NCBI GenBank assembly: GCA_023380585.1
Contig: JAMCRN010000014.1
Location: 1-44,685 of the forward strand
Length of the DNA: 44,685 nucleotides
From: Candidatus Parvarchaeota archaeon
GTDB lineage: Archaea > Nanobdellota > Nanobdellia > Parvarchaeales > Parvarchaeaceae
Reading direction: 5' to 3'
Of this stretch, positions 2,250 through 33,858 are shown in pieces (the stretch's first letter is position 1; each line of letters starts with the position of its first letter). The notes below the pieces were generated by a model. It had not been told where the DNA came from and did no database searches. It saw nothing but the letters and a program-made list of their open reading frames with translations. The position numbers and the translations under genes are program-made.

Positions 2250-2371
2250 TGCAGGGGGTGGGATTTGAACCCACGAGGGCGCTAAGCCACAGGATTTCCT
2301 ACATAATCCGAAGACCGTGATCCGCCAAAGTCTTAAGTCCTGCACGTTGGGCCAGACTTCGCTACCCCTGC
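2250..2371 (-). tRNA. tRNA-Leu(TAA) with 36-nt intron
   Basis: Minus strand acceptor GCAGGGG/CCCCTGC with discriminator A, T arm GTGGG-TTCAAAT-CCCAC, and a long variable arm. Anticodon stem CAGGA/TCCTG encloses 43 nt, so about 36 nt is intron after CTTAAG (position 37/38). Acceptor stem and D-arm are almost the same as in tRNA-Leu(CAA) at 781-881. CCA is not encoded. Confidence 0.92.
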
Positions 2372-11687: not shown

Positions 11688-12680
11688 TTAAGACAGGTAT
11701 GCTGGGTGGACCCAAAACTGTGTCATTCCGCTGCCTCCACCCATATTATTCCAAGCTATTGCGACTAAATAAAGGCCGGGACTAACACTGTATCTAGCGT
11801 TATAATATGTCGCGCCTTGACCATGCCAAGCGGAGCCGCCGAAAACACTCGTCCAAGAGCCGCCACCAACTGGTCTAAAAAATACCTCCATAGCATCATC
11901 AGTAGTTATATTGAAATTCACTGTATTGCTTACAAAATCATAAACGCCTATTACAGTACTGCCGACCTGCTCTGATGATCCTCCGCAGCCAGTTGGAGAC
12001 CCAAGATTCAATTGCTTTAGATCCGTCGGATAATATCCAACAATGAACCCATTGTAGTTGTTCCCATAATATCCACCGCTACCATACGCGTATCCGTTAC
12101 CAGTCGAATTCGCCGCTGGTAAAAACCCTTGGGCTATTGTAGCAGCTATGTCCTGTGCTATTAAAGGATCAGTAGAAACAGCAGAGTAAGGCTGACAGTT
12201 ACTTATATTCCAACCAGTTATGAACAACTGGTCACTTGTAGCGGTCCCATAAGCGCTTCCAGAAGAGACATAAGGTCCTGGAAGGGGAGATCCGAGTTCC
12301 TTATAAGTAACCACCAATCTATATGAGAAGTGAGAACCAGCTGGAGGACAAAGTACCGGTACATAAAAAGAATACACTTCGGAAGGGCTTATAGTTATAT
12401 TCGGCATAGTTTCCGAAATCGAGGAAACGTTTATCTGGGTTATATTTATAGGATACTGTAGAGAGTCTCCCAAAGTTAATATCAGTCCTCCTCCACCGGT
12501 GCAATCTGCTCCGACGGAGCCTAGACCATAAAAACCTGTAACTGCTCCTGATATTGAAGATGAAGGACTGAATATTCCAAAAGAGTAAAGGACTGCGGCT
12601 ACGATGACTATGATCAGGATAGCCCAGCCATAGGTCATCATGTACTCTAAGGCTGACTGGGATTTGTGCGTCAGACTCAT
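11688..12680 (-). CDS. Type IV pilin-like surface protein (class III signal peptide)
   Basis: Exported protein of 330 aa. The N-terminus MSLTHKSQSALEYMMTYGW has the archaeal class III prepilin signal: short basic leader, Gln at +1, and Glu at +5 of the mature protein, followed by the hydrophobic helix AILIIVIVAAVLYSFGIF. Prepilin peptidase would cut before QSALEY. The rest is Gly/Ser/Tyr-rich with many N-x-S/T sites, few Cys, and a C-terminal beta-rich block with DAMEVFFRPVGGGSW and YSVSPGLYLVAIAWNN that looks like a PA14- or carbohydrate-binding-like fold, unusually large for a pilin. TATA box 12700-12707 gives a leaderless transcript. It may be the major pilin partner of the operon at 26.6-33.9 kb; this is inference. 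Confidence 0.78.
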   Translation of the reverse strand: MSLTHKSQSALEYMMTYGWAILIIVIVAAVLYSFGIFSPSSSISGAVTGFYGLGSVGADCTGGGGLILTLGDSLQYPINITQINVSSISETMPNITISPSEVYSFYVPVLCPPAGSHFSYRLVVTYKELGSPLPGPYVSSGSAYGTATSDQLFITGWNISNCQPYSAVSTDPLIAQDIAATIAQGFLPAANSTGNGYAYGSGGYYGNNYNGFIVGYYPTDLKQLNLGSPTGCGGSSEQVGSTVIGVYDFVSNTVNFNITTDDAMEVFFRPVGGGSWTSVFGGSAWHGQGATYYNARYSVSPGLYLVAIAWNNMGGGSGMTQFWVHPAYLS

Positions 12681-17856: not shown

Positions 17857-17866
17857 TCACCTCCTC
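17857..17866 (-). promoter_or_regulatory. Shine-Dalgarno site that decides the DUF355 gene start
   Basis: Minus strand GAGGAGGTGA, overlapping the TGA of the giant surface protein and 5 nt before ATG 17851. Stronger than nearly all other sites in the window, where starts are mostly leaderless. Confidence 0.75.
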
Positions 17867-20800
17867 ATGTCGTTACGCAAGGAACTCTGACCCCAGTGAA
17901 TTTTATGCTCTGAGTGCCGCCGGCAGTCAAAGACCCTGAAGATGGAGACGGTCTGTATTCTGTAGTATCTGTCTGTCCTGAAGAACATGAAAGTAATACA
18001 ATGGGGACACTGAAACTATGTGTGCCTGCAGGGATGCTGGAGAAAGATATAGTGGAAGACGTAGAAGAGTGGGTTTGGAAATCATAGGTAACTGTCCAGC
18101 TATGACCACTTGGAACACCTGTTTCCTTGAAATATGACGTGCATGAGCCTGACCCGCTGAAACTTATCTTCTGTGTGGACCCTGTGCTTAAAGACCCTGA
18201 AGAAGGGGAAGGAGAGTATTTGCATCCTCCTTCTGACACCACAGGGACCAAGAAGCTGTATGTACCTTGTGGTTCTAAAAAGGTTATAGTCCCAGATAAG
18301 GAAGTCTTTTTGACTCCGTCATATGTCACACTCCACTGTGTGTTCAGAATGCCGGATTCGGAGAATACTGCAGAACAATCAGATGAGGCTGAAAATGCTA
18401 TATTTTGAGTGCCGCCGGCAGTCAAAGACCCTGAAGCCGGCGAAGCCACATAACATGTCCCAGAGACTACAAAGCCGGTAGGGACAGAGAATGAATAGCT
18501 GCCGGCAGGGGATTCAACGGTTATAGTAGAAGTGGAAGACAAATTTAATATAGAATCGTAAGTAACGTTCCACTGAGTGCCGGCAGGCAGGCCAGATTCT
18601 GTGAATGTAGTGACACAGCTCGTTGAGTTAGAAAAGTTTATGTTTACGGTTCCGGCGGCTGGGGCTACTCCGGAAACAGGCGAGGGAGTGTATACTGTAG
18701 TGCATCCTGATGAAGAATTCTGCGTATCGAGGACAGTAAAATCGTTGTTCCCATTAGACAACGTATATATCTGGGAGATATTTGAACGGACTATGTTCCC
18801 GCCGTAATCCACTCCCCACTCTGATACGCTCAGGACCTGCTGCGGTATGCCTGTTTCTATGAACGTAGTCGGCTTATATATCGAAAGGAATGAACTGACA
18901 GGGTTTTTTATCTGGTATATTCTTACCGGGACTATATTGTAGCTCTTTGGAGAGACAAGAAGAGTATAACTTATGTTCCATACAGTCGGCAGATTATACG
19001 CACGATAATATTGGGACCTCACGGAATAAGTAGAATTACCAGGACTCTGATATATACAGTTTATAACGTATCCATAAAGAAGGTTGTTGATCTGGTTACA
19101 GCCTTCATCGTAAGTTATATTGAAAGACCAGCTTTTCGTGCGACCAGGATATGTGGATGTAAATATCCTTGGAGAACCGTTAGGGCATGTTGAATTCAAT
19201 TGGACTGCATTAGAAACGCTGTCGAATACTTGGACGGATGGAGGAGAAGTGCTGCCGTTTTCGCTTATGCTGTAGAATTGTATAGCATGAAGGCCTGAAT
19301 TTAGCTGACCCAATGAGAAATATAGACCATTGGAGTACTCAGGTGGCAGTGATTGCCCTGAACAAAGTTGTCCTTCTCCTAGGTTGAATAAACCGTAATC
19401 CCCCTGGAACTTTGAGCCTAGACAGTTCTGAGACGTACCTCCCGTGAATATGTTCATGGCGTAATCGAAAACGCTCCCGTTGACAAAGCCAGGTATTCCG
19501 CTTATCCCGAAATAAGGGTTCTGTAAAAGTATCGTATTCAGCATGTCATACGGATAGAAAGAGGACTCCGACAGGGACTGTTTCTGGTTATTTGATATTA
19601 GCAAGTCTGCCGGATAAAGCTGCGTTACCAAGTTTATAAGCTCCTGTTGTGAGACTGACAGGCTTGTGAAGTAATCATCTCTGACAGGATTGACGAAATA
19701 CCCACTCGGTATCGATACGTTTAATGGCAAAGTAGTGGATATTATACCAAAACCTACACCTGTGTCTAAAGACGTCCTGTTGTCATACTGCACCACAAAT
19801 GAAGCGTTGGTGTTTAATGAAGCCGGATAATGATAAGCTATACATTTATTGGATAAAGTAGGTGGATAATAACCAGGTGATGAAAAGGAGTTGCAGCCTG
19901 TCGGCGTACTGCCGTACTGAGGGCCGCTTACTGTCACGTTATCAGTCGATGAAGTTATGTATATTGCAGTACCCTGGTTTACACAGGAGAAGTCAACGCC
20001 TGTACTTATCGTTCCTGATGCGTAGTTACTGGAACAGGACAATATGCTTCCTGAGTACCCTGTAGGGCAGCTGTAAGTCTGGTAGAACTGACTGTTTCCA
20101 TCTGGATTTGTTGTTATAGTTGGAGCTGTGACGTTGAATGCATCCCTTCCCGCTTCGCAGCCACCTACTTCTGGTATTCCGCTTGGGTTTATAGTATTGA
20201 AGGTCGTGCCAGGCTGCCATGTCCACCCTTCACTCTGCACATTTTTCTCTATGAGAGCAGAAGAATTCCCACACGTATAATTCGACAATAGATAGGTAGA
20301 TTCTGATTGTTTTGTGTTTATGCTGAAATCGCTTATTTCTATGCTGTCTGATTTGACCCCAGAAGCAGTTATAGAACATGTTCCTGTAAGATTGTTCTCG
20401 CTGGAAGATATTGGAGATGAGGAGAAAGAGGCTTCGCAGTTGCCGGATGTGCTGGGATATGTGCATGAAAAACTAGTATTAGTGTTTGACGATGAAACAA
20501 ACCATCCACTGCATGAAAACGAAGGTTGGAGCGGTTTTGTAGGAGCCGAACTGCTGTTGAAAAGATAGCTTGATAATGATACCGAGAGACTGCTTGCTTT
20601 TTTCGGAGAAGAGGAAGAAAACGACAATGTGCCGTTTGTAGGCGCGCATGAATATTGTATATTGTTGATATCTCCTACGAAACAGCCACCGCCTATAGGA
20701 TAATTCGTTCCTGTATACACTCCATTAGAGCTATAATTATAGTTGTTGGGGTTAGATTCTGGTATCGCTTCTATAGAATCATAAGAACCGGCTTGAGGCA

Positions 20801-23800
20801 TAACTGGGGGGGCTGGTTTTATGCAGGATGTATAGTTATATACGCTGTCGTTTATCGGACAGGAATCTATGAATGTCTGGTTAGATGGAAGATATAGTAT
20901 ACTATTTATCCCGATTGAAGCTGTATGGGAGACTATGTAATTCTCACTTGGGTTCGATGATTGGTATTGGACGTAGCTCCCATTCACGAACAATTCAGGT
21001 CCTTCCCCTGGTATAGGAGTCTGGCCTGAAATTGAGCAAGCATCATATAAAGTACCATCGTTTGCTGAGAAGTTGCCTGGCTTGTATAGAAAGCCTACGG
21101 TTTCACCGCTCTGTGCGTTGTAAAGATTCGACGAAGACGTAGCCGGAGAGGAGAATCCTTCGGTATACGTAGGGCTCCCTGAATACAAACAGTACTGCGG
21201 TCCTGCTTTCGGATTTATATCAGAGGAAGTTATGTTTACAAGGCTTTCTGTTCCAGATGTAGTGACAGTCGTAGTGCATGAATTGACAAACGATGGATTT
21301 GGTGCGGTCCCATTCTTTGTATATTCTTTTTGTACTGTCACCGTATTATAGCCCAGGTATCCTACAGAAATAGGAGGGCTTACACTGGCGACTTGCCCTG
21401 TGCTTGCTGCAGCGTATGAAAAGTTATCTATCAAGTTGTTCTGAATGTTGAAGTCTATCGCTGGCCCGGAAGTCTGTATCTGGTCTGTTATTACATTAGA
21501 ACCATCGTATACGCAATAGATACTTACGACGTTTTGGGAAGGACTAGTCGTTTGATAAAGCTTATTTGAATCATAATTTATGTTTCCAAACCCTGTTTCC
21601 TTCCATACCGCTGTCTGGGAGCTAGTATATGAAACATCGAAGCATGCGGCTACAGGGCCGTATCCTGATTCTGATATCACAGGGGATGATGAGGAAACAT
21701 TATTAAATAGCAGAGTGCCTATATCATTTCCATTTATATTAAAATCGCTGATACACGGACCAAAACCGGACTTACAATCCGATTCTATAGTCCCGGAATA
21801 GTTCGAATACGCGAACCCTACGCTGTAAGGGGTCTGGGATAGATTTATCCAGGATACAGAAACGTTCAATGGCGGCGGAGTCCCTTCCAATATCATATAA
21901 TTTGTTACTCCTGGTCTTGAAACAAATACGTAGCTACAGTCACCTTGTATGTTCGGGAGAGTCTGGAACGGCAATTCTGAATAAGGATACGGACTGTTGG
22001 TTACCACTTTTATACCCTGGCATGAATAAGTGCCCTTCGGCATTGAAAACACGACTGGCGCAGGTGGAGATGTATACGGAATGGAGAGATTTTCCTCCGC
22101 CGTCGGGGAATCGGCTGCGGCTGAAGGGTCTATTATTAGGAAAGCTCCTGCAGACGGAGAGGGTATGCTTGGAAGGAATATGTTCTTTGTTATTTCCTGG
22201 CCGCCGGATTCCTGCGTAAAGTTTATAGAATAATTCCCACCTGCTTCTATAGTACACTTCCCCGTATAATTCAAAAAGCCATCGCTTATTACTTGATTAT
22301 ATAAGCCGCAGCCTACGCTTGACTGACCGTATGCGCTTAAGTTAACGTCCTGCGAATTCAGCGGTAGATCGTCTTCTGTTATATATAGTTCATTATTGGC
22401 CTGGCTCTGGACTGCCTGGCCTAGGCCTATGTCTCCGCTTCCGAGATAAGCATTGTTAGAATCGTTGATGAAAACCGCCCTTATAGCCTGAAATGACTTA
22501 TTAAGATAACAGATTATGGTCCCGTTTTCGAGAAGATATTCTCCGTTTGAGACTTGCGAAGCACCGACGTCCGCTATAGGAGTGTTTGGTACGCTGTTTT
22601 CTATATTGCAGGAGAATGGAGTATCATTCAAATAATACAGGAAAAGTTTGGAATCTTTTAAATATCTTGTCGAAGGGGTAAACGAGAACAAAAGCGAAAA
22701 GCCTTTCCCTATGTTACCGCTTATATTCAGAGTAGTAGAATAAGTCCCGCTGCTGCTCGCTATGAAATTAGTTATATTGCTTGAGACAGGTGCCGTCCCG
22801 CCGTAAGTCTCATTTGACAGATTAAGATTTGAGTCATTGTACAGTTCGACATTGAACGGCCCGACCTTTGATGTTATCTTCATTACTGTATTGTTTATGA
22901 CTATGTTGCTTAGGCACCCGGAAGAGCTTATAGACGGCGACAAAGAGTCAGAAGACAGCACTCCTGATCCGTTCGTAGTACCGCTGAAACTGCAACTAGA
23001 CCCATCGCTTAAAGTAACAATTACGGGGTTACCAGAATACGTGCTTGTGTTCTGGAGATTTTGATATCCGACTATCTTTAACAGTGATCTATTGCTGAAG
23101 ATATTAGAGGCCTCCAATGCGAAACCGTAACTGCCTATAGGCACACCACTATATGTCAATGTCACATTCGAGCTTAACGCTGATGAAACGTGGCTAGTGT
23201 TTGACAATATATTATCTAAAGAGCCATTGCCCAGGTATACGAAAGCCTGTCTGTTTGATTCGGCAATAGAACTGTTTATTTCCGGTTTCTCTAATTGGAA
23301 TGACGCTATTGAACTTTGATACGCAGGAATATTGTTGAATGAAAGGCCTACGCTGTCGGAATATGGCATGAACAGAAGACCTCTCCACCTGGTTATTAGG
23401 ATGTTGTCAGGCGTAGAGTTGTAGTTGTAAAAAGCTTGTGTAGCATATTTTATGTTTGGAGAAGAAGCTGCCTGACTTAGCCAGAAGACACTGAAGTCAT
23501 TAAGGTTGTCCTGTGACGCAAAGCACGATACACTTGAGCCACTAAGAGGATTCGGTATCCTAGTCGGATGAGCTTTACATTGACCAGGAAGAGGATTCGT
23601 AGTGCAGTACGGATTCTTACTCTCATATGTAAGATTTACCAGTCCGCTTCCTGTCAAAGCCAATATATCAGTAGAAACTGTCGCCGTTATAGAGTTTTGG
23701 GTGTTGTTAGCGGCGGTCAATGATACGTTGAAATTATTGAAGTATACTGTGCTTGACTGGAAAGGACTTGTACTAAAGTTCGTATTTTCATAACTGACTA

Positions 23801-26528
23801 TGTACTGCCATGTCGGAGAAGGCATACCAGAAGGACTCAGCACCTCGTTGTTGTGGTAATACGAGCCGTTCCTCTGTCCAGATGCGACAAGAGGGTCCAC
23901 TTTGAACCCAGTGCCTATAGTGTTGGTTGGATTGTTAGATACTCCGCTGCCTGAAGCCCATGATACATTGAAGAGATTACCGAAGAAGACGCTCATATTG
24001 AATCTCCCGGCCAAAAGAGCCTCGAATAATGGCATCGGTATCTCTACTGTAAAAGTCGCAGTACCGTTCGGGATTATAAGAGGCAGTTGTGTATTATTCG
24101 AATCGGAATGAACCAAGAACGTATTTGCAGTCCTTATAACGTCTTTGCCTGACGACGGATAATACATCCAGAGGCCAAGAAGCGAATTGTTGTAAGGACC
24201 ATTCTCATAGTATGGAGCTGAGAACAGAGACTGTATCGGTATGGGATTAAGTGGAAATCCTGGCTTATAAACATACATGTCAGTCTGGAATGTCTTATTG
24301 TATCTTACTTCTATAACTCCGGTGGTTTCATGCTGTATCTGGCTTATAAAATCTGTGTACAAACCATAGTTCTGTATCTCAGAGTTCCCACTGTTTGAAG
24401 AATAGAACATCTGCGTAGCGTTCGTGTCTCTAAAAAGTACCACAAGATATGGGTCGTTTATATCCTGCGTACCAACGTTTTTGACAGTTATCACCAGCGA
24501 GGCATAAGAACTGTTAGAGCTGAAGCTCGGACAATCATATGTCTTTTGAAGGAATGTTGTGGAATTCGCCACTGGGTCAGAAAGGCTCTTCTTCCCGTCA
24601 AACAACCCACAGTACTGCCCCGCATTGTTTGCTATGAATATAGAATTTATCCATGCATCTGTCACTTTAGACGTTATCCCACTAGGCGTGCATGCCAGTC
24701 CCGAGGAGAATATACCGTCCTTGAAGTTAAGGAGATTATTATACTGCGGGGAAAAACAGTTAGAGCTGTTGAAGAAAGCGTTGCACTTTCCTATGTCAGA
24801 CGTGTAGTTCTCGGCAGAAGTCGGAGGCACTATCCTTGTATATGAAGGAGGCGTATAGACCCCAGTGACAGTGCTAAAATTCTCCCCGAAGAAACACATG
24901 CTGTCCAAAGCATCCTGCGTAAAGGCATTAAGTTGGCTAGAGTCGTTTGCAGGAGAGAACGGCTGAAGGTCAAGGTAATTAAACTGCAGGTTCTCTGATT
25001 CAGTAGTTGTGGACGGAGAAGTCCTTGTAACTGGAGCGGTTGTCGTGCCCATATTTCCATCCCAGTAGCGCTGGTACGAAACGTGATTTACAGAATTTGG
25101 GTCTTCGAATGTGCAGTTTGAGTAAAAAATGTTCGGAGCAGCTTCTAATCCGCAAAAAGGAAATATGACTCCTGTCTTGAAGTAATCATATAAAAACAAC
25201 CCGTATGTGCCGGTCTGCACTTCTGGATAATAACCTGCGTTTAGATTAGGCAATGTATATCCGCTGACAGAACTGCTCTGTGTCATTTCATTGAATTTTT
25301 GAGTGGTGTCTAATCCGTAATAACCGCTGCCTTGAGGCGGAAGAAAACTCATGACGGAGGTATTGCTTATGTACACGCCGACAGGAGAAGAGCTTGAAGA
25401 ATCGAGCTGCATGTCTATAGACGTATTGAAGAAGGATGAGACGTTTATGTACTGGGAATCTCCAGCATTTCCCGCAGGGAACTTGGCATATCCGATTGCA
25501 GGATTTGTATGCGGTGTCTCCTGTGATAACAATTGCAGTTTATAGACTAAAAATGCGTCATTGGACCATACAGGCCATCCTGCGGACGTAGGCCCAGAAA
25601 GACTGATTATATACGTCGCAAGATAACCCGGATGATCAAATGAAGCGAGGCCGATCGAAGGAGTGAAACCACTAAGCGACTCTATGTAGTATAAACTGTC
25701 AAAGAGAGAATTGTAGTCAGAGGACAGTGGAAACGAACTTCCACATGAAATAGCAGGTATTATTATGGAACTGTCTTTTGCGGCCTGTATTGGTGTATGC
25801 GATGATGTGTACCCGCCGGTATTAAAACTATTATTTATGGCATAGTAATAATTTCCTCCACTCCCAGTATATTTGAACAATGTATTATTTGCACTCCAAT
25901 TAAAGAAGTTTGGGTACGGTGCTGCAGGAGGTAGACAAGTGTATGGTGTCCCGGGAGCCAAAGGCGAGACTACTGCTGATATTATGTTTGGGAAGTCATA
26001 TGTCCCCGAGGGGGGAATCGGATCGTAGCATGTCAATGGTGGTGAAGATTCTGCTACAGGATAGCCGATATATCCGACGACATAGCTGTAATTCTTTGTC
26101 TCGATCTTCCCTGGTTTTTCGCATGGATACGGGATGCCATTGAAGTAACACGTTCCTATATACCCAGAACCTATGTACTTGTCAGAGGAGCAGTAAAATT
26201 GATTCGAATTTTGATACTGAGAGATGTTCCCATACGTAAATTTTTCTTCCAGTTGTAGCTGATTGGAATTAAAGCCGGGGCCTTGGGTTATCTCGTTTTC
26301 CGTTATTAGACTTGAGACTGGCGGAGGAGTAGAACTAAAAGAAGATATCCTACTTGCATCTGTTTTCGGGGAGCTGTATACCTGGAAGAACGGTGCGCTG
26401 GCAGTTATTTGTTGAGCCACATGAGCTTCAGCGCCGGTCCCGCCAGTTAGGATAGCCGTCATCCGGATAGAGAGCCCTAACACAAGGACTAATGCTACAA
26501 AGATCAAAAGCACATCGACTCTATCCAT
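17865..26528 (-). CDS. Giant exported surface protein with C-terminal thermopsin-like repeats (2887 aa)
   Basis: The largest gene in the window. N-terminus MDRVDVLLIFVALVLVLGLS is a TM/signal anchor; there is no C-terminal TM. The rest is Ser/Thr/Asn/Pro/Tyr-rich with very many N-x-S/T sites and scattered Cys, typical of a glycosylated S-layer or stalk-like exoprotein. The last 334 residues hold four tandem units of about 80 aa, at about 2554, 2638, 2718 and 2796, each with an (F/Y)-E-(T/S)-G-(I/L/V) start, W-x-V-x-Y-(D/G), a G(T/S)(Y/H)SF-VP strand and PSPxSGSLTAGGTQ-like end. This pattern occurs after thermopsin-type proteases and in Thermoplasmata surface proteins; no protease domain is recognised here. 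The chain ends at CVTT, the first residues of another unit. Strong Shine-Dalgarno (26532-26541) and own TATA (26571-26578). Confidence 0.85.
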   Translation of the reverse strand: MDRVDVLLIFVALVLVLGLSIRMTAILTGGTGAEAHVAQQITASAPFFQVYSSPKTDASRISSFSSTPPPVSSLITENEITQGPGFNSNQLQLEEKFTYGNISQYQNSNQFYCSSDKYIGSGYIGTCYFNGIPYPCEKPGKIETKNYSYVVGYIGYPVAESSPPLTCYDPIPPSGTYDFPNIISAVVSPLAPGTPYTCLPPAAPYPNFFNWSANNTLFKYTGSGGNYYYAINNSFNTGGYTSSHTPIQAAKDSSIIIPAISCGSSFPLSSDYNSLFDSLYYIESLSGFTPSIGLASFDHPGYLATYIISLSGPTSAGWPVWSNDAFLVYKLQLLSQETPHTNPAIGYAKFPAGNAGDSQYINVSSFFNTSIDMQLDSSSSSPVGVYISNTSVMSFLPPQGSGYYGLDTTQKFNEMTQSSSVSGYTLPNLNAGYYPEVQTGTYGLFLYDYFKTGVIFPFCGLEAAPNIFYSNCTFEDPNSVNHVSYQRYWDGNMGTTTAPVTRTSPSTTTESENLQFNYLDLQPFSPANDSSQLNAFTQDALDSMCFFGENFSTVTGVYTPPSYTRIVPPTSAENYTSDIGKCNAFFNSSNCFSPQYNNLLNFKDGIFSSGLACTPSGITSKVTDAWINSIFIANNAGQYCGLFDGKKSLSDPVANSTTFLQKTYDCPSFSSNSSYASLVITVKNVGTQDINDPYLVVLFRDTNATQMFYSSNSGNSEIQNYGLYTDFISQIQHETTGVIEVRYNKTFQTDMYVYKPGFPLNPIPIQSLFSAPYYENGPYNNSLLGLWMYYPSSGKDVIRTANTFLVHSDSNNTQLPLIIPNGTATFTVEIPMPLFEALLAGRFNMSVFFGNLFNVSWASGSGVSNNPTNTIGTGFKVDPLVASGQRNGSYYHNNEVLSPSGMPSPTWQYIVSYENTNFSTSPFQSSTVYFNNFNVSLTAANNTQNSITATVSTDILALTGSGLVNLTYESKNPYCTTNPLPGQCKAHPTRIPNPLSGSSVSCFASQDNLNDFSVFWLSQAASSPNIKYATQAFYNYNSTPDNILITRWRGLLFMPYSDSVGLSFNNIPAYQSSIASFQLEKPEINSSIAESNRQAFVYLGNGSLDNILSNTSHVSSALSSNVTLTYSGVPIGSYGFALEASNIFSNRSLLKIVGYQNLQNTSTYSGNPVIVTLSDGSSCSFSGTTNGSGVLSSDSLSPSISSSGCLSNIVINNTVMKITSKVGPFNVELYNDSNLNLSNETYGGTAPVSSNITNFIASSSGTYSTTLNISGNIGKGFSLLFSFTPSTRYLKDSKLFLYYLNDTPFSCNIENSVPNTPIADVGASQVSNGEYLLENGTIICYLNKSFQAIRAVFINDSNNAYLGSGDIGLGQAVQSQANNELYITEDDLPLNSQDVNLSAYGQSSVGCGLYNQVISDGFLNYTGKCTIEAGGNYSINFTQESGGQEITKNIFLPSIPSPSAGAFLIIDPSAAADSPTAEENLSIPYTSPPAPVVFSMPKGTYSCQGIKVVTNSPYPYSELPFQTLPNIQGDCSYVFVSRPGVTNYMILEGTPPPLNVSVSWINLSQTPYSVGFAYSNYSGTIESDCKSGFGPCISDFNINGNDIGTLLFNNVSSSSPVISESGYGPVAACFDVSYTSSQTAVWKETGFGNINYDSNKLYQTTSPSQNVVSIYCVYDGSNVITDQIQTSGPAIDFNIQNNLIDNFSYAAASTGQVASVSPPISVGYLGYNTVTVQKEYTKNGTAPNPSFVNSCTTTVTTSGTESLVNITSSDINPKAGPQYCLYSGSPTYTEGFSSPATSSSNLYNAQSGETVGFLYKPGNFSANDGTLYDACSISGQTPIPGEGPELFVNGSYVQYQSSNPSENYIVSHTASIGINSILYLPSNQTFIDSCPINDSVYNYTSCIKPAPPVMPQAGSYDSIEAIPESNPNNYNYSSNGVYTGTNYPIGGGCFVGDINNIQYSCAPTNGTLSFSSSSPKKASSLSVSLSSYLFNSSSAPTKPLQPSFSCSGWFVSSSNTNTSFSCTYPSTSGNCEASFSSSPISSSENNLTGTCSITASGVKSDSIEISDFSINTKQSESTYLLSNYTCGNSSALIEKNVQSEGWTWQPGTTFNTINPSGIPEVGGCEAGRDAFNVTAPTITTNPDGNSQFYQTYSCPTGYSGSILSCSSNYASGTISTGVDFSCVNQGTAIYITSSTDNVTVSGPQYGSTPTGCNSFSSPGYYPPTLSNKCIAYHYPASLNTNASFVVQYDNRTSLDTGVGFGIISTTLPLNVSIPSGYFVNPVRDDYFTSLSVSQQELINLVTQLYPADLLISNNQKQSLSESSFYPYDMLNTILLQNPYFGISGIPGFVNGSVFDYAMNIFTGGTSQNCLGSKFQGDYGLFNLGEGQLCSGQSLPPEYSNGLYFSLGQLNSGLHAIQFYSISENGSTSPPSVQVFDSVSNAVQLNSTCPNGSPRIFTSTYPGRTKSWSFNITYDEGCNQINNLLYGYVINCIYQSPGNSTYSVRSQYYRAYNLPTVWNISYTLLVSPKSYNIVPVRIYQIKNPVSSFLSIYKPTTFIETGIPQQVLSVSEWGVDYGGNIVRSNISQIYTLSNGNNDFTVLDTQNSSSGCTTVYTPSPVSGVAPAAGTVNINFSNSTSCVTTFTESGLPAGTQWNVTYDSILNLSSTSTITVESPAGSYSFSVPTGFVVSGTCYVASPASGSLTAGGTQNIAFSASSDCSAVFSESGILNTQWSVTYDGVKKTSLSGTITFLEPQGTYSFLVPVVSEGGCKYSPSPSSGSLSTGSTQKISFSGSGSCTSYFKETGVPSGHSWTVTYDFQTHSSTSSTISFSSIPAGTHSFSVPIVLLSCSSGQTDTTEYRPSPSSGSLTAGGTQSIKFTGVRVPCVTT
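17911..17941. repeat. 31-bp exact direct repeat, copy 1
   Basis: Identical to 18406-18436, 495 bp away. Encodes SGSLTAGGTQ on the minus strand at the end of the last thermopsin-like unit. Identity at wobble positions suggests recent duplication or gene conversion. Confidence 0.85.
18406..18436. repeat. 31-bp exact direct repeat, copy 2
   Basis: Second copy of the element at 17911-17941, at the end of the second repeat unit. The third unit between them differs. Confidence 0.85.
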
Positions 26529-26531
26529 TTT

Positions 26532-26541
26532 CTCCCTCCTT
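26532..26541 (-). promoter_or_regulatory. Strong Shine-Dalgarno of the giant surface protein gene
   Basis: Minus strand AAGGAGGGAG, a few nt before the ATG at 26528. It shows a leadered mRNA, unlike most genes here. Confidence 0.7.
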
Positions 26542-26570
26542 GCTTAGGCCAATTTTACAAGTCATTTTGG

Positions 26571-26578
26571 ATATAAAT
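26571..26578 (-). promoter_or_regulatory. TATA box for the giant surface protein gene
   Basis: Minus strand TTTATATC in the 64-bp gap after the 1147-aa gene, about 43-50 nt before the ATG. Allows separate transcription of the last surface gene with a roughly 20-nt leader. Confidence 0.55.
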
Positions 26579-26592
26579 TTTTTCATAGATTA

Positions 26593-29500
26593 TCAAGTCA
26601 CCGAAGACCAGCTGTAAAACGGGCCGGACACTCCTATTATATTAAAATCAGGATACAGCGGATTAAAGTTATGATAGAGCGAATCAAGACTGGGTTGCGG
26701 AGGGTACGGAGAATAAGTCGCGTTTAGAATGGTTATTTTAAGGGACGGACTAGTAGTGATGCATGCGAATTGGGAATAGTACTTGGATAACGTAGAATTA
26801 TATACATATGGCGGCTGTGGCTCGAAGTTAGTCAGATTAAGAGAGCCGTCAGAATATGAAGGAGCGTATTTATGCTGGTCTTTTGGGTAGAAAAAGTTGA
26901 AAGCAGTGTTATGAAGAGACGAAGACGAAAAGAATACGGGGAAGACTCCAAGGCCATTGTCTGCCATAGCTCCTGAGTAAGCTGCGCCGTTACCGTATAC
27001 TATGTATACGTAGGATGGCATGTTCTTTGATAAGTTTATCCAAAGGACACCACCATTCTGCATAGGAGTCTGGTTCCACCAGTATAGCTGCTGCACGGAA
27101 CCCGAAGAATAGACTCCGAATACCTTCAAAAATCCATTAGAGAGGGAGCCGAAATTGAAATCTTCGTTAAGTATTACCTCAAGTTGATAGGCGCTAGACG
27201 GTTTGACGCTGCTGTTGATCACTAGTTCATTGTAATAAGTGCCTGCGTCTGTTGACAGTCCAAAAGAAGAGTTAAGGTCTTTATTAAGATTAGAAGCTGG
27301 GTAAGCGGGATATGATATTTTTACAGGATTGTATCCAGGTATCAGATCGTGCACAAACATATAACTGATCATGTCCTCCGCTGTACCGGCTCCGGTCGAA
27401 AAGCCGATAAAACCTGGAGCATTTAAAGGCAGACTGGATGCTAGGTCTCCATTTATACCTGTCTGGTTGATCGAGTTCACGGAGAAATACATTTCACAAG
27501 ATGATGAAGACATGCAGTACTTGTTCAACTGTAAATTCTGGATATGATTTGTAACTGCTCCGCTGTCCGACGCTGATAACAATACCTCTCCGTAATCATT
27601 AGAATAATTATATATTGCATTTGTATCGCCAGATGCAGGAAGCTTTACTATATAGAACGGGTCTGAAAGTGAGCTGTATCTGCTCAAAAGAAGATCGAAG
27701 GACGGAGAAGGGCCGTTTATCTTCACTCCTAAGTCTAAACTGAAGTTCTGACCGACAGGTATTCCACTACCGTTTATGGCTGCGATCGTCCAATTCCGAT
27801 ATGACTCTTTATTCGGCAGAGAGCCGCCACCATATACAGAAATGAACTCATAATTAAGATTGGATGAAGTAAAGTTATCTCCATCTACTACGACATAGTT
27901 CGGGCATGAATTGTCACGTGTTATCCAATTTTGGTACGAGAACCCGTCAAACTTATAATACGGACAGAAATAATATGATGAGCCGCTGACCTTACGACAA
28001 TATTCTCCGTTGAAAGCAGACGCGTTTATAGTCTGCTCTACTGCTTGGTTTGTGGTCTCCAGACTTGAGATGCATGTGCTGTTAAGAAAGATCTTGGATG
28101 TGACTGGGGCGCAGTTTATATAGGCAGTACCGTTCTCCAGAAAAGCCTGATTGAATCCTGGGTACCCTGTGGTGTAAGGAGTGCCTTGCAACCCGCAATT
28201 TTCGGAGGGAGTTAGATTTAGACCGTTTTGGTATGCGAAATTTATGGATATCGGTATGCCCAAAAGCTCGCTTTGCTGCGCGTTGTTTACGGACCTCGTG
28301 CTTACTGAGAAATTATAGCTTACAGAAGAATTGTATTTGGAGTAATCACTGCACGACGGAGCTTCTTCTGCGTGGACTGAGAGATTAAGAACGTTGATGT
28401 TTATAGGAGAACCTGATAAAAACGACAACTCTATCGGCATCTGATGGTTAAACAGGTTATTCAGATCAGACTTTATAGTACTGGACAGAAGGTCCCTGCA
28501 GAAGACTAGATCAGATGAGTTGTATGAACAATTGTATATGTACGTGCCGTCATAGTACTGCCTTACCCTGCTCAACTGTTGTATGATATAGTTCTCTCCG
28601 TTCGGAGAACCTAAACTAAGCAATAAGGAGGAATACCAGTCATATTTTGGCTGGCCGTTTACCGAGACTGTTCTAAGGTTGACACCGTGCACCACATACG
28701 TCAAATAGTCATATAGAGAGTACTGTGGGAATCCGGTTATGTTAGTATCGCCTAACGGAAAGCTCTGGTTGACGAAGGCAGCGCCTAGCTGCATTACCTG
28801 GCTTAAATAATTATTATCGGAAAAGTAGCCAGAAAGACTGAGGCAGTTGCGGAGAGTGAAGGCAGACTCATCATATGACACGCAGATCTGCGGATTGTAA
28901 AGCGGAAACATGGAAACTGACACGTATAGGGGTTTATTGTTTGGGAAGAGAAGGTCCTCAGTACCGGCCTGCTGGAATTGGTTTATTAAGTACTTGTAAT
29001 AGATAAAATTCGGCTGCAGAGGCAAAACCGCAAAGCTTTCCGGCGATATATCAAATATGCCGTTCACAGTAGCCGTCACACTGAAAGTGTAGCTTGTGCC
29101 ATCGAAGACGAACACGGAATTATTGGTCAATGATATCTGCGCCTGCTCCCCTGCAGCGATATCCTGCTTTTCCGCTTGTATAAGAGTGTACACGTTTTGT
29201 GACTGAAGAGGAGTAAGGTAGAAAGCAGTGCCACTTGAGGAGGTATTCGTGTATATTATCCCTGTTTCTCCGTCTGGAAAAGTCACAAGTGCGTATTGCG
29301 AATTCGGGGATTCCCCCGAACCTGCGAAGAAAGCGCTTACAGCTGTTGGTTCCGATATTACTCCTGATATAAGGTCCGCCTCCGGCAGGAAACTGAAAGA
29401 TTTTCCCTCCAATAGAAAATTCACGCCAGTAGGTCCGGAGAAGGATATCAAACTGCCGCTGCCGCAGCTTGGTCCTGTGGAGTTGCACACTGTCACTGAG

Positions 29501-30036
29501 TCATTGGTCCTGTTGTACTCTATAAGGTAAGTGTAGTTTAGAAAAGGCGCGGAAAAATGCGTTGTGAACAGTCCTGTAGGTGATTTTGACATATTGAACT
29601 CAAGGGAAGAAGTTATATCAGAGCTGTTTTCTCCGATGATGGAGAATTGGCTCTGGTTTAGTATATCTGTCAAACCATAAAGTATCTCCTGGTTATCCGG
29701 TAAGCATGTCTGGCCGCTTATCGTATGCCAATAATAGACTTTTGCGACAGGTATGAAGGGCAGTCTTGTAGTAGCGTTTATGTAGCCGCAGTTTATGCTG
29801 GTTGGTGTAAGAGACAGACCGTCGAATAATTGGGCTTTGTCAAACAGATAATGAGATTGCTGGAGAATGTAGTCTTTCAATGCAAGTGTCTGGTAGATGC
29901 TCTTCTGTGCCGTTATGCCTATCTGAGAGCTCATGCTTATGTTCCCTATGTATGTAAAAGCGTTAAGAACGACGAAGATGACTGCTGCTATCATGCCTAT
30001 GACAACGATTATGTTCGCCTGTCCTCTCCTATCCAT
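26593..30036 (-). CDS. Large exported pseudopilin-like protein with DUF2341-like domain (1147 aa)
   Basis: N-terminus MDRRGQANIIVVIGMIAAVIFVVLNAF has a short basic leader with RRGQ before a hydrophobic helix, matching class III prepilin signals; cleavage before Gln is predicted. The long exterior is rich in Ser, Asn, Tyr and N-x-S/T sites. At about residues 935-1045 there is a DUF2341-like unit: YNELVINSSVKPSSAYQLEV..., VFGVYSSGS-QQLYWWNQ and the typical YVYIVYGNGAA strand; DUF2341 occurs in archaeal and bacterial surface proteins and may bind carbohydrate or protein. Starts 1 nt after the 195-aa gene stop. It has no catalytic motif that I can see and is the fourth gene of the surface operon. 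Confidence 0.8.
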   Translation of the reverse strand: MDRRGQANIIVVIGMIAAVIFVVLNAFTYIGNISMSSQIGITAQKSIYQTLALKDYILQQSHYLFDKAQLFDGLSLTPTSINCGYINATTRLPFIPVAKVYYWHTISGQTCLPDNQEILYGLTDILNQSQFSIIGENSSDITSSLEFNMSKSPTGLFTTHFSAPFLNYTYLIEYNRTNDSVTVCNSTGPSCGSGSLISFSGPTGVNFLLEGKSFSFLPEADLISGVISEPTAVSAFFAGSGESPNSQYALVTFPDGETGIIYTNTSSSGTAFYLTPLQSQNVYTLIQAEKQDIAAGEQAQISLTNNSVFVFDGTSYTFSVTATVNGIFDISPESFAVLPLQPNFIYYKYLINQFQQAGTEDLLFPNNKPLYVSVSMFPLYNPQICVSYDESAFTLRNCLSLSGYFSDNNYLSQVMQLGAAFVNQSFPLGDTNITGFPQYSLYDYLTYVVHGVNLRTVSVNGQPKYDWYSSLLLSLGSPNGENYIIQQLSRVRQYYDGTYIYNCSYNSSDLVFCRDLLSSTIKSDLNNLFNHQMPIELSFLSGSPININVLNLSVHAEEAPSCSDYSKYNSSVSYNFSVSTRSVNNAQQSELLGIPISINFAYQNGLNLTPSENCGLQGTPYTTGYPGFNQAFLENGTAYINCAPVTSKIFLNSTCISSLETTNQAVEQTINASAFNGEYCRKVSGSSYYFCPYYKFDGFSYQNWITRDNSCPNYVVVDGDNFTSSNLNYEFISVYGGGSLPNKESYRNWTIAAINGSGIPVGQNFSLDLGVKINGPSPSFDLLLSRYSSLSDPFYIVKLPASGDTNAIYNYSNDYGEVLLSASDSGAVTNHIQNLQLNKYCMSSSSCEMYFSVNSINQTGINGDLASSLPLNAPGFIGFSTGAGTAEDMISYMFVHDLIPGYNPVKISYPAYPASNLNKDLNSSFGLSTDAGTYYNELVINSSVKPSSAYQLEVILNEDFNFGSLSNGFLKVFGVYSSGSVQQLYWWNQTPMQNGGVLWINLSKNMPSYVYIVYGNGAAYSGAMADNGLGVFPVFFSSSSLHNTAFNFFYPKDQHKYAPSYSDGSLNLTNFEPQPPYVYNSTLSKYYSQFACITTSPSLKITILNATYSPYPPQPSLDSLYHNFNPLYPDFNIIGVSGPFYSWSSVT

Positions 30037-30037
30037 A

Positions 30038-30625
30038 TCAAGTCATGACTCCGAATATAGTTTTGGGGGATGATGGATCCGCTGGATTATATACCTGCAA
30101 AGAGCAGACTGCCGTAGGATTTGAGACGCTTGTAGGCACTTGGTTCATAAATACCTCCATACCGATAGCATCCAATGTAAGGGAGTTCGCCGATTTTATG
30201 CTGTCAAATTGGCTCAGAGAGAAGGAATTGAAATATGATATGAAATCATTGAACAGCGAAGAGGAGTTGGATAGGGAGCTTGAAAGAAACGTATAGCTTT
30301 CTGAACAGGATGAGCCGCAATCCAGAGAGAATGACTGAGCTTTACCGGAAACAGCCGTAAGATACTGTGATGGTTGGGTCAGCTCTAGTTGAGTCAGCGT
30401 AGCCAAAGTGTGTACATAGTAAGTGCCATAAAGCGAATCCAGAGCCAGATTGCATGCGTCTATCGTCGGCTGCTGAGTGACTGCCGTCAGTATATGAGCA
30501 GTAGAACTCTGCAGGAAAAATGCCGCCAATATCGACAGAAAAACGGCAGCCAACGGTGCCAGTAGAAGGTCCAGGAAGGTCAGCTGGCCTTTCTTCGATC
30601 TTTTAAGTGAATGGTGATATTCCAT
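30038..30625 (-). CDS. Small pseudopilin-like exported protein (195 aa)
   Basis: N-terminus SLKRSKKGQLTFLDLLLAPL, with a basic leader and KKGQ preceding a long hydrophobic helix (to about residue 42); this looks like a class III prepilin signal with Gln at +1. The exterior is about 150 aa, Ser-rich, with four Cys (DACNLAL, SLDCGSSCSES, AVCSLQVY) that may form disulphides. The start overlaps the end of the 268-aa gene by 23 nt and the stop is 1 nt from the next start, so it is in the same operon. In size and topology it resembles minor pilins such as GspH/I/J, without sequence proof. Confidence 0.75.
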   Translation of the reverse strand: MEYHHSLKRSKKGQLTFLDLLLAPLAAVFLSILAAFFLQSSTAHILTAVTQQPTIDACNLALDSLYGTYYVHTLATLTQLELTQPSQYLTAVSGKAQSFSLDCGSSCSESYTFLSSSLSNSSSLFNDFISYFNSFSLSQFDSIKSANSLTLDAIGMEVFMNQVPTSVSNPTAVCSLQVYNPADPSSPKTIFGVMT

Positions 30626-31409
30626 AGTTAACTGTTACGTAGAGCAGACCGGTGTTTGTAAACATTGGCTGGTCTTCTTCGTTAACAAACTGTATAGTCA
30701 CTGGGAGCTTTTCGGTATATGTCGTTTCGCCGTAAAATAGGTCCGCCGCAGAATATTGCGGCGCTATACTGGAAGGCGTATTCGAACCAAAAGCTAGTAT
30801 AAGATTTACGTTCAGCAGGCCTGCTGTAGCTACCCCTATGGCCGTGCTTATTGCCACGCTTGCTGGGATGGCCACATATTCGGCATCAGTTGCCAGATGG
30901 GCCATGTAATTCCTTACCTCTAAAAATTTGCTCCCATAATTTAATTGATTGTAATTAGAAAGGAATAGAGAACCTGTACCCCCGAGATTTGATGGATCCT
31001 GTGTATCGACCAATCTTGCAGATACGCCAGTTACAGCAGCGAACGACCCTGTGAGTGCTGGAATGTTAGTGGCACCTCCGAAATACATATATTGTATACA
31101 AGAGAGGAAACTGTCTTCGGAGAACTTCCCCAAGTTTATAGTTCCTGGCTCAGTATCATATACTGAATATATAGGTCCACCGGGCGCAGAAGACGAATTG
31201 TCATAGTAGTTCATCGAAAGCTTGTAAGCAAAGCAATTTGGGGACGATACCATCCTTATCCCCAATGAAGACGCGACGGAAGCCGCATTAGCGTACAAAG
31301 CCACGCTGTTTATCTGTGAAACACTGAAAGAAAGTACTATCAGCAACAAGGCAAACGATATAATAAGCACTCCTGTGTTCACAAAAGCCATCAGCTGCAT
31401 CAGTGCCAT
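30603..31409 (-). CDS. Exported pilin-like protein, CFAY motif family (268 aa)
   Basis: N-terminal hydrophobic helix at about residues 10-33 (VNTGVLIISFALLLIVLSF) followed by a helix, SVALYANAASVASSLGIRM. The next block SSPNCFAYK ... GTINLGKF ... FLSCIQY forms a pattern (SPNC-AY, then P-x-I-x-L-x-KF, then a Cys) that I recall in small secreted pilus-type proteins of archaea; this recall is not a database result. The helix lacks the GQ motif, so it may be held by a normal signal anchor. It ends with beta strands YVTVNYGISPFT. Starts 1 nt after the 815-aa gene. Confidence 0.72.
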   Translation of the reverse strand: MALMQLMAFVNTGVLIISFALLLIVLSFSVSQINSVALYANAASVASSLGIRMVSSPNCFAYKLSMNYYDNSSSAPGGPIYSVYDTEPGTINLGKFSEDSFLSCIQYMYFGGATNIPALTGSFAAVTGVSARLVDTQDPSNLGGTGSLFLSNYNQLNYGSKFLEVRNYMAHLATDAEYVAIPASVAISTAIGVATAGLLNVNLILAFGSNTPSSIAPQYSAADLFYGETTYTEKLPVTIQFVNEEDQPMFTNTGLLYVTVNYGISPFT

Positions 31410-31410
31410 A

Positions 31411-33858
31411 TCAACCTACAGAGTAGCCCTTATCCCCGAGCGTTATTGTCGCGTTCACGAACTGCCCGCCTTGAGAATTATAGTTATTGGGATATATACC
31501 AAACAACAGATTATCACTTAAAAACGTTAGACCTATGCTTGTAACTATCCTATGCAACCGCAAAGAAAACGAAGGTATTTTTGTGACTAGGAAAGTCACG
31601 TTTGCATAATCTGTTGGGTAAAAAGACAAGTTATCCGTGGCATAATTCAGCGTGATGGGGGACAAAAGCTGATTTAACAATGACGATTGTAGCGATATCT
31701 GGAACTTCGGGGCCTGCTGTTTTATTATGCCTGCGAACAAAGACGCAATCGGAGAGTCCATACCTGTTTTGAACAGATATAATGGAGAAGGCCCTGTTAT
31801 AAAGTTTTGAGCTGATTTTAGCACCGGATTGAAATCTAAAGCCGTCGTAAGCTCATTGGGGTAGTCCATTATCGGTATCGAGAATCCGATTTCTGACTGA
31901 TTGTTTATGAAAAAACCGTTCGGCGCCAGCTGATTCGGTATGTTTAGAGCGGTCGTAGACGAACCAGTATATGTCGTAGGGAAATTAAGGTTGTAAGTGC
32001 CGTTAGTCAATGCTGTGAGATTGATACAGGATACCGGAGAACCGTATTGTGTGAAGTACTTATTGCTTCCTCCTCCTGCTACGGTTGAGTATTTAGAGAC
32101 TGGATAGCCGTAACCGTTTATAATAAGACGAAACAGGCATAGACTTGCGTCTGAAGAAGAATTCGATATTCCTATCGCATATTCTGATGGGACAAAAAAG
32201 CTTACCTTAGAGACTAAAGCTTTTGAGTTTATTATTTGATCGAAGACGCTCGTTATTGTTTTAGGAAATATTGGATCGTTGGTCTGGCACATTGTATTAT
32301 ATATGCCCTGATTTATGCTGAAAGACATGGAGCCGTTTCCTGCAGGATATATTATAGACTGCAGGTTTGTCCCTGGCTCTGTGCTTGTCTCTGCGATGCC
32401 ACAGGAATCAGACATGTCTGCTATTATAGGCGATTCTGCTACTGTAGGACGGCTGCTGGACTGGCCGTTTACATATACCTCCCCACCATATCCGACAAAG
32501 TAAGTCCCGATGTTTGTTATAACGTTTAGCTTGTCAAAGATGTTCACCATAGATGTAGCGTATCCAAACGTGGATGCAAAATTGCTGACCGTACCGCCTA
32601 CACTGCTATAAGCCTTCGGATTTGTGACCTGTGGCAGATTTCCCAGGCATGCTGCGGTCCTTGCATACGTTAACAGACCTGACTCTGTTGCGAAAGCTAT
32701 ATATCCAAGCAGAGGATCTCCTTTCCCATTTACTTTTACATTTCCTATGAATGAATCTGGGGAAGACAAAGCAGATGGGGCTTCTACACCGCTGTAGGGC
32801 GTTGAATACTGATTTGTATTTGGACTGGGCGATTGACTTAATTCGCCTACAAGGTCTGCCTGCACGCCTTCCTGCTTGGCGATAGATGTTTGGAGATTAG
32901 ATTTCTGTAACCCCGCTGGCAAAGATGATGCTAAGCCAGCAGTGGCCTGTATCTGGGCGATGTGTTGCGTTATGAAAAAAACTCCGCTGTATTGCGGCAG
33001 AAGAGGTTCTCCCGTCAGAAAGACGCTTGCTGCTGTCGATACCGCGGAGGAATCTTTGACTATCGATGAAACCGTATTTACTATTGGAGTCGCAAGCCAG
33101 AACAGAAGTAGAGGCACACCGAAGTTCTGGAATATCCTGCTTTTTAAAATGCGCTTTGCTAACCTTAGACCTAAAGGCAGACCACCATTTTGAGACTGAG
33201 CGACCTCATCTAAGTTAGTAGGTAAACCATTGTCAACAGAAGGCGACGACGTCGAAGAATGATCAAGCTCAGATACCGCGTCTTCCGAAACGCCTTCTTC
33301 TGCGAGCAGGGAAGCGCCTGCTTTTGGTATTAGCTGACCGCCTTCGTATATAAGTTCTCCGTTTGAAAACTTGTCTGCAGTGTCAAAAAATGATGCTATG
33401 GACTCTGGTATGTCTCCGGCTATGGAAGCTGCATCCTCCCCGCCTGTTAGGGCGGTAGAAACGGCGCTGCTCCCTTTGAATATCTTCCCTATCGGAAACG
33501 TGCCGATCATAACGCACAAAGCCCCGCTGAAAATGTTCTTTCCACTGTCTAGAGTCGGCCCTGAAGCATAAGAAACATTATATATTTTAGACCCTCCCGC
33601 ACATGTATACGCATCTATAGCCGAAGACCAGCTGCATAATGATGTGTTTCCAGCGATTGTGACAGACATCGTGGAAGGGGCTTCATAGAGAGCGTTCTTT
33701 GCCGCACCTATGTTATTCGCGAAGATCTGCAGCGAATTCGCGCCGTTCTGAAAGAATATCCCCTGTAGCTGGGCGAAGTATATGCCTACTAAAAGAAAAC
33801 CTGCAGAGAGAATAAGCACTGCGATTCCTATTACTATCTGTCCTCTCTCCATAGACAT
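31411..33858 (-). CDS. Exported pseudopilin-like protein, first of the surface operon (815 aa)
   Basis: N-terminus MSMERGQIVIGIAVLILSAG shows RGQ directly before a hydrophobic helix, a class III prepilin-like signal. After residue 100 the chain is Ser/Gly/Ala-rich; a second hydrophobic segment lies at about 240-265 (FGVPLLLFWLATPIVNTVSS), so the protein may cross the membrane twice or contain a buried helix, which is unusual for a pilin. The C-terminal half is N-x-S/T rich and beta-like, with several Cys. No enzymatic motif is seen. It is the promoter-proximal gene: AT-rich boxes lie at 33873-33895, and the next gene follows after 1 nt. Confidence 0.78.
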   Translation of the reverse strand: MSMERGQIVIGIAVLILSAGFLLVGIYFAQLQGIFFQNGANSLQIFANNIGAAKNALYEAPSTMSVTIAGNTSLCSWSSAIDAYTCAGGSKIYNVSYASGPTLDSGKNIFSGALCVMIGTFPIGKIFKGSSAVSTALTGGEDAASIAGDIPESIASFFDTADKFSNGELIYEGGQLIPKAGASLLAEEGVSEDAVSELDHSSTSSPSVDNGLPTNLDEVAQSQNGGLPLGLRLAKRILKSRIFQNFGVPLLLFWLATPIVNTVSSIVKDSSAVSTAASVFLTGEPLLPQYSGVFFITQHIAQIQATAGLASSLPAGLQKSNLQTSIAKQEGVQADLVGELSQSPSPNTNQYSTPYSGVEAPSALSSPDSFIGNVKVNGKGDPLLGYIAFATESGLLTYARTAACLGNLPQVTNPKAYSSVGGTVSNFASTFGYATSMVNIFDKLNVITNIGTYFVGYGGEVYVNGQSSSRPTVAESPIIADMSDSCGIAETSTEPGTNLQSIIYPAGNGSMSFSINQGIYNTMCQTNDPIFPKTITSVFDQIINSKALVSKVSFFVPSEYAIGISNSSSDASLCLFRLIINGYGYPVSKYSTVAGGGSNKYFTQYGSPVSCINLTALTNGTYNLNFPTTYTGSSTTALNIPNQLAPNGFFINNQSEIGFSIPIMDYPNELTTALDFNPVLKSAQNFITGPSPLYLFKTGMDSPIASLFAGIIKQQAPKFQISLQSSLLNQLLSPITLNYATDNLSFYPTDYANVTFLVTKIPSFSLRLHRIVTSIGLTFLSDNLLFGIYPNNYNSQGGQFVNATITLGDKGYSVG

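What the first reader, a model, noticed from the sequence alone, without database searches (positions are those of the whole stretch)
17865..33858. 16-kb cluster of five exported, pseudopilin-like proteins including a 2887-aa giant
Five consecutive minus-strand genes (815, 268, 195, 1147, 2887 aa) are all exported and have an N-terminal hydrophobic helix. The first four are separated by 1 nt or overlap; the fifth follows after 64 bp. Three start with RGQ, KKGQ or RRGQ directly before the helix, as in class III prepilin signals. The sizes resemble a bacterial minor-pilin set (small tip proteins plus a large adhesin), but at far larger scale. I know of no named archaeal system with this arrangement. 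It could build a surface fibre, stalk or host-contact organelle.
Basis: partly seen in the sequence, partly recalled or inferred. Interest (0 to 1): 0.8.

Follow-up and report, generated by a model that had tools for sequence, protein, structure and literature searches.

The report
Giant-tipped pilus genes in Parvarchaeota archaea
Five neighbouring genes in a tiny, probably host-dependent archaeon most likely encode the tip and adhesive parts of a type IV pilus-like filament, including a sugar-binding-type domain and a 2,887-residue surface protein, and give testable candidates for how these archaea grip other cells.

Summary
Five collinear minus-strand genes encode exported proteins of 815, 268, 195, 1147 and 2887 aa; three carry class III prepilin signals (RG|Q, KKG|Q, RRG|Q). 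The block keeps its order across the Parvarchaeota order (gene 4 found in 25 of 32 genomes; most missing cases I followed up are assembly gaps). Homologues of genes 1-4 occur more widely in the DPANN class. There they sit in one operon with a long T2SSE ATPase, a membrane platform protein and class III pilins. The window's own genome encodes all of these elsewhere, plus an A24 prepilin peptidase; its ATPase is 49% identical to the linked one. Gene 4 is a modular pilin: its model matches ConA-like lectins and the S. sanguinis pilus-tip pilin PilC. The giant is not a pilin: it has a ~2500-aa core and a variable-copy ~80-aa repeat tail, and that repeat also ends gene 4 in two relatives. Best reading: genes 1-4 form a minor-pilin tip complex and gene 5 a PilY1-like non-pilin cap/adhesin of a type IV filament, probably for contact with other cells. 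The filament kind is known and DPANN pilus islands were noted in 2019; I did not find this giant lectin-bearing tip set described.

The parts
31411..33858 (-). Gene 1 (815 aa): class III prepilin-like, MERG|QIVIGIAVLILSAGFLLVG; 8 Cys conserved in number in most orthologues
   Evidence: homologues in L066, L067, L071
30603..31409 (-). Gene 2 (268 aa): pilin-like; predicted 54-residue N-terminal helix then beta strands; signature SPNCFAY...PG...K...C conserved class-wide
30038..30625 (-). Gene 3 (195 aa): class III prepilin-like, KKG|QLTFLDLLLAPLAAVFLSILAA
26593..30036 (-). Gene 4 (1147 aa): modular class III pilin, RRG|QANIIVVIGMIAAVIFV, with beta domains
27277..27804 (-). Gene 4 residues about 745-920: predicted ConA-like/laminin-G-type lectin domain (boundaries inferred from the model and from the Laminin_G_3 match in orthologue L037)
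26932..27090 (-). Gene 4 residues 983-1035: DUF2341-like segment (below Pfam cut-off; 5 of 12 orthologues match at E<=0.1)
17865..26528 (-). Gene 5 (2887 aa): secreted/signal-anchored giant, conserved core about residues 74-2560, 60 Cys, 87 N-glycosylation sequons, no class III motif
17868..18863 (-). Gene 5 residues 2556-2887: four ~80-aa tail repeats, copy number variable between orthologues

Best explanation
The five genes encode the tip module of a type IV filament (T4F). Shown: genes 1-4 are homologues, in the same order, of pilin-like genes that in other families of the class lie in one operon with a T2SSE-type extension ATPase, a membrane platform protein and class III pilins. The window's genome has the same ATPase and platform on another contig, plus an A24 prepilin peptidase and stand-alone class III pilins. 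Inferred: the peptidase trims genes 1, 3 and 4 (gene 2 may stay uncut); the four N-helices pack into a priming complex like bacterial PilHIJK; gene 5 caps it as PilY1 caps bacterial pili; the ATPase and platform then polymerise the QGLPINTI-type pilin beneath, pushing the complex outward. The gene 4 lectin-like domain and the repeat tail of gene 5 then bind glycans or glycoproteins on another cell, most likely the archaeal host or partner these organisms depend on.
For: Order conserved in the order. Class-wide homologues of gene 2 in 71 of 264 genomes; long ATPase in 254 of 264. Outside the family, 16 of 27 genomes with both positions known have them within 30 kb. Direct operons in L072, L100, L101, and L071 with the platform. 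Own C26 ATPase 49% identical over 749 aa to the ATPase in L072; own 703-aa platform 37%/29% identical to L071/L072 platform genes. A24 peptidase above cut-off in own genome, and inside an ATPase-pilin operon in L094. Stand-alone pilins C16 and C17. Gene 4 model matches ConA-like lectins (best E 2.9e-5) and PilC minor pilin 7oa7 (E 1e-3, prob 1.0). Another pilin in the same genome, near a second T4P ATPase, has Laminin_G_3 (5.4e-17) plus DUF2341. The repeat is shared by gene 5, gene 4 of two relatives and other class III proteins. Tip-complex logic from PMC10191384 and PMC9934059.
Against: In this order the five genes are not beside the ATPase (different contigs; 28 kb apart in G006). Genes 1-4 show no sequence similarity to characterised pilins; the gene 2 model (pLDDT 66) has no significant PDB match. 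The gene 4 model is weak overall (pLDDT 54) and its N-terminal part is below 50. The platform matches T2SSF only at E 0.06. Tip location, cleavage, expression and host binding are not shown. Sizes of 815-1147 aa are large for minor pilins.
Confidence: 0.72

Rival explanations
1. The same machine is a short pseudopilus (type II secretion-like) that pushes large proteins, including the giant, out of the cell rather than a long adhesive pilus.
For: Shares ATPase, platform, peptidase and pseudopilins; large secreted proteins sit in the operons in several families.
Against: Archaea lack an outer membrane that would need a secretin-type exporter (general knowledge); lectin-type and repeat modules are fused to or shared with pilin-like proteins themselves, which fits display better than export; major-pilin candidates exist.
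Confidence: 0.12
2. An adhesin/S-layer gene cluster whose N-terminal helices are plain membrane anchors; the resemblance to prepilins is incidental.
For: Gene 2 and gene 5 lack class III motifs here; no pilin fold hit for gene 2; block apart from the ATPase in this order.
Against: Class III motifs (K/R-G/A-Q) conserved in genes 1, 3 and 4 across the relatives aligned and in distant gene 2 homologues; operon linkage to ATPase, platform and pilins elsewhere.
Confidence: 0.08
3. A DNA-uptake (Com-like) pilus serving nucleotide salvage in a host-dependent cell.
For: Com pili are type IV filaments of the same parts list (PMC10191384); DPANN genomes often lack nucleotide synthesis (general knowledge).
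Against: A lectin-type domain and a giant repeat protein suggest surface binding; no competence protein was seen beside the genes; not tested further.
Confidence: 0.05

Closest known systems
DPANN 'dark matter' type IV pili islands (Makarova et al. 2019, PMC6393860, Fig. 2A)
   Same: Secretion ATPase, TadC, surface proteins and unrecognised signal-peptide proteins inferred to be diverse pilins in DPANN genomes
   Different: No description found there of this four-pilin plus giant block, its order, its lectin-type domain or its split from the ATPase in Parvarchaeota (figure itself and supplement not readable here)
Archaeal clade 1 T4P with DUF2341 adhesins (Makarova et al. 2016, PMC4858521)
   Same: Large DUF2341 proteins proposed as PilY-like tip adhesins, several minor pilins, ATPase and platform
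   Different: ATPase here is a ~750-aa form; pilin families show no detected similarity to known ones; giant is 2.5-4 kaa. The paper states that cognate pilins of nanoarchaeal 4F ATPases could not be identified
S. sanguinis PilABC tip complex (PMC9934059)
   Same: Minor pilin PilC is a class III pilin with a grafted ConA-like lectin; matched by gene 4 model (7oa7)
   Different: Bacterial, PilC about 53 kDa; gene 4 is 1147 aa with several beta domains; no sequence homology
Bacterial PilHIJK-PilY1 tip of T4aP and Myxococcus Kil/Tad tips (PMC10191384, PMC12075869)
   Same: Small set of minor pilins capped by or carrying large adhesive domains, used for cell contact
   Different: No detectable homology; the giant here is secreted and non-pilin with tail repeats
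Nanobdellota attachment organelle (PMC11420986, PMC11104419)
   Same: Related DPANN archaea; ~7 nm tube/filament at a host-contact site; protein identity unknown
   Different: No evidence yet that these genes build it; cone and portal have no counterpart identified here

Membership tests
Type IV filament (T4F) superfamily | Extension ATPase of the T2SSE family encoded and tied to these genes | tested here: met
   Own C26 ATPase PF00437 3.6e-20; its homologue lies in the operon with gene 1/2 homologues
Type IV filament (T4F) superfamily | Platform protein (GspF/TadC type) | tested here: inconclusive
   703-aa membrane protein beside the ATPase, 7-8 TM segments, only weak T2SSF matches E 0.06-0.26
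Type IV filament (T4F) superfamily | Prepilin peptidase | tested here: met
   PF01478 over cut-off in own genome and in 27 of 30 genomes of the order
Type IV filament (T4F) superfamily | Subunits with class III signal and long N-terminal helix | tested here: met
   Genes 1, 3, 4 by motif; gene 2 by homology and predicted helix 2-55; gene 5 does not meet it
Type IV filament (T4F) superfamily | Polymeric filament of pilin | not testable with these tools
   Needs microscopy
PilHIJK/PilY1-type tip complex | Homology or fold match to H, I, J, K or PilY1 | tested here: not met
   No Pfam/NCBIfam match over cut-off; gene 2 model no PDB match. Likeness is of layout, not membership
Modular lectin pilin (PilC-like) | Class III pilin with ConA-like lectin fold | tested here: met
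   Gene 4: motif, fold matches, Laminin_G_3 in an orthologue at E 7.6e-4, below cut-off. Carbohydrate binding not testable
Archaellum, Tad, bindosome (ATPase subtype) | ATPase over the curated model cut-off | tested here: not met
   FlaI 127.6 of 550 bits, TadA-type 115.3 of 373, BasE 78.7 of 1000

The most novel reading that the evidence does not exclude
The near-universal long-ATPase type IV filament of this DPANN class, with the giant-tipped pilin set as its Parvarchaeota version, is the genetic basis of the host-attachment apparatus (the ~7 nm tube/filament of the cryo-ET attachment organelle), whose proteins are unknown.
Probability: 0.12. Interest if true: 0.9.

Novelty: new variant of a known kind. 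Interest (0 to 1): 0.62.

Why it matters
How DPANN archaea grip their hosts is an open question: recent cryo-ET papers state that the proteins of the attachment organelle are unknown (PMC11420986, PMC11104419), and a Parvarchaeota genome study found only virB11 and TadC as pilus genes and called cell-contact proteins 'limited' (PMC7779479). A 2016 census could not find pilins to go with nanoarchaeal ATPases (PMC4858521). This set supplies named candidates: pilins, a lectin-type tip pilin, a giant with variable repeats, and their ATPase, platform and peptidase. All can be tested in existing co-cultures or by heterologous expression.

Tried and rejected
Mobile element or virus: rejected. The block lies between conserved core genes (CCA-adding enzyme, Lhr-type helicase, Lon) in the relatives whose flanks were read. 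Real absence in some species: G018 and G028 also lack the flanking CCA enzyme and a close Lon orthologue; G010 and G003 contigs break inside gene 5, so these are assembly or binning gaps; G001 was not resolved. Shared ancestry among the five: no BLAST similarity between them. PDB sequence search with the gene 4 profile: nothing. Fold search of gene 2: nothing significant. Archaellum, Tad and bindosome assignment of the ATPase: below cut-offs. In f7 genome G037 the ATPase and platform have no pseudopilins beside them, so linkage is not universal.

Full report
WHAT IS THERE. The window is contig 14 of a 0.70 Mb, 31-contig genome. The five ORFs are exactly as described. Genes 1-4 are packed with 1-nt gaps or a 23-nt overlap; gene 5 starts 64 nt after gene 4 behind a GGAGG ribosome-binding site. 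Each protein has one strong N-terminal hydrophobic segment. Class III signals precede the helix in genes 1, 3 and 4. No Pfam or NCBIfam model reaches its cut-off in any of the five.

CONSERVATION. Gene 4 is found in 25 of 32 genomes of the order at about 30-55% identity. In the relatives with an intact stretch the order is gene 1-2-3-4-5 with lengths about 806-1286, 262-277, 182-199, 1130-1570 and 2552-4016 aa. The block is flanked by housekeeping genes such as a CCA-adding enzyme, a large helicase and Lon. Apparent absences were followed up: two genomes lack the flanking core genes too, two have contigs that end inside gene 5, and one was not resolved. No loss was demonstrated. The block is therefore an old, vertically kept chromosomal locus.

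WIDER FAMILY. Profiles found distant relatives in other families of the class. Gene 2 is found in 71 of 264 genomes, with a signature N/D-C-F-A-Y, then P-G and a K, then C. In f13 and f19 the same order 1-2-3-4-5 is kept. In f6, f9 and f12 homologues or positional counterparts of genes 1-4 stand downstream of a ~760-aa T2SSE ATPase, a ~700-aa membrane protein and several small class III pilins of the type KAQGLPLNTIVLG. Sequence support there is strongest for gene 2; genes 1, 3 and 4 rest partly on position. In f5 the operon of ATPase, platform and class III proteins also holds an A24 prepilin peptidase above the Pfam cut-off. Outside the window's family, 16 of 27 genomes with both positions known have gene 2 and the ATPase within 30 kb (p about 2e-13 under a simple 6% chance per genome, which ignores phylogeny). 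The ATPase itself is in 254 of 264 genomes.

THE SAME MACHINE IN THE WINDOW'S GENOME. On contig 26 lie an ATPase 49% identical over 749 aa to the operon ATPase of G069, and beside it a 703-aa protein 37% and 29% identical to the operon platform genes. An A24 peptidase is on contig 28. Class III pilin candidates are on contigs 16 (GQGLPINTIILIAIGLLILVF) and 17. So in Parvarchaeota the machine is split into separate loci, and the window carries the large pilin-like and giant part. A second, separate T4P locus exists on contig 9 with a 505-aa ATPase.

DOMAINS. The gene 2 model has a 54-residue N-terminal helix followed by beta strands, the topology of a type IV pilin, but confidence is moderate (pLDDT 66) and no PDB match is significant. 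The gene 4 model is good only in beta domains at about 145-340 and 745-1020. It matches ConA-like lectins (CBM66 2.9e-5, laminin G, galectins) and PilC, the lectin-bearing minor pilin of Streptococcus sanguinis (7oa7, E 1e-3). The tool does not print which residues align. Residues 745-920 are inferred, because an orthologue has a weak Laminin_G_3 match at 735-823 and DUF2341-like segments follow at about 975-1040 in several orthologues. The combination Laminin_G_3 + DUF2341 is clear in another pilin of the same genome (1006 aa, contig 9). DUF2341 proteins of methanogen pili have been proposed as PilY-like tip adhesins (PMC4858521). Giant counterparts in f14 carry FG-GAP repeats.

THE GIANT. 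It has an N-terminal signal anchor without class III motif. A core of about 2500 aa is 35-45% identical between relatives, followed by a variable tail. The tail consists of ~80-aa repeats (four here, none to eight detected in others). The same repeat ends gene 4 in two relatives and appears in other class III pilin-like proteins. This sharing ties gene 5 to gene 4 and to the pilus surface, and the variable copy number is what one expects of an exposed adhesin.

MECHANISM. Type IV filaments start from a tip complex of minor pilins, which in many bacteria is capped by a large non-pilin adhesin, and modular pilins may carry grafted adhesive domains (PMC10191384, PMC9934059; Myxococcus contact-dependent killing uses exchangeable large tips, PMC12075869). 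The layout here (four pilin-like proteins plus one non-pilin giant, with a lectin-type domain on one pilin) fits that plan. Membership of the type IV filament superfamily is well supported. The PilY1-like role of the giant and the host-contact role are inference, the latter from the lifestyle described for Parvarchaeota and from reported pili-like links between ARMAN cells and Thermoplasmatales (PMC5864196).

NOVELTY. DPANN islands with a secretion ATPase, TadC and unrecognised pilins were pointed out in 2019 (PMC6393860), so the kind is known. The conserved four-pilin plus giant module, its lectin-type pilin, its class-wide linkage and the split locus in Parvarchaeota were not found in the papers read. 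A Parvarchaeota study reported only virB11 and TadC (PMC7779479). Whether this filament is the tube of the Nanobdellota attachment organelle (PMC11420986, PMC11104419) is open. It is testable, but I give it low probability, partly because one small family (f7) has the ATPase without adjacent pseudopilins.

Noticed in passing
window 11688-12680 (-): 330-aa protein starting MSLTHKSQSALEYMMTYGWAILIIVIVAAVLYSFGIF, a class III pilin of a different type (SQSALEY), probably belonging to the second T4P system of this genome.
   Followed up: partly
L078:1938-4955 (G000 contig 9): 1006-aa SQSALEY-type pilin with Laminin_G_3 (5.4e-17) and DUF2341, a few kb from a 505-aa T2SSE ATPase with two membrane proteins beside it: a second lectin-bearing pilin locus.
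   Followed up: partly
P0005 residues 2556-2887 (window 17868-18863); L035, L036, L087, L030: An ~80-aa repeat (FTESGLPAGTQWNVTYDG...SPSSGSLTAGGTQ) is shared between the giant, gene 4 of two relatives and other class III proteins, with no Pfam model found; from memory it resembles repeats in Thermoplasmatales surface proteins, which would suggest exchange with hosts, but this was not tested.
   Followed up: partly
window 781-881 (-) and 2250-2371 (-): Two tRNA-like genes found by Rfam but not ARAGORN, 101 and 122 nt long, probably intron-containing tRNAs.
   Followed up: no
L085:5807-6439 and L081, L082: A conserved ~205-aa membrane-anchored protein (FLTIPDTFKVHMQY) directly follows the stand-alone QGLPINTI pilin gene in three genomes and may be a further filament component.
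   Followed up: no
G018, G028: Same-genus genomes listed at 100% and 84% completeness both lack the core CCA-adding enzyme and a close archaeal Lon orthologue, a caution on the completeness values.
   Followed up: partly
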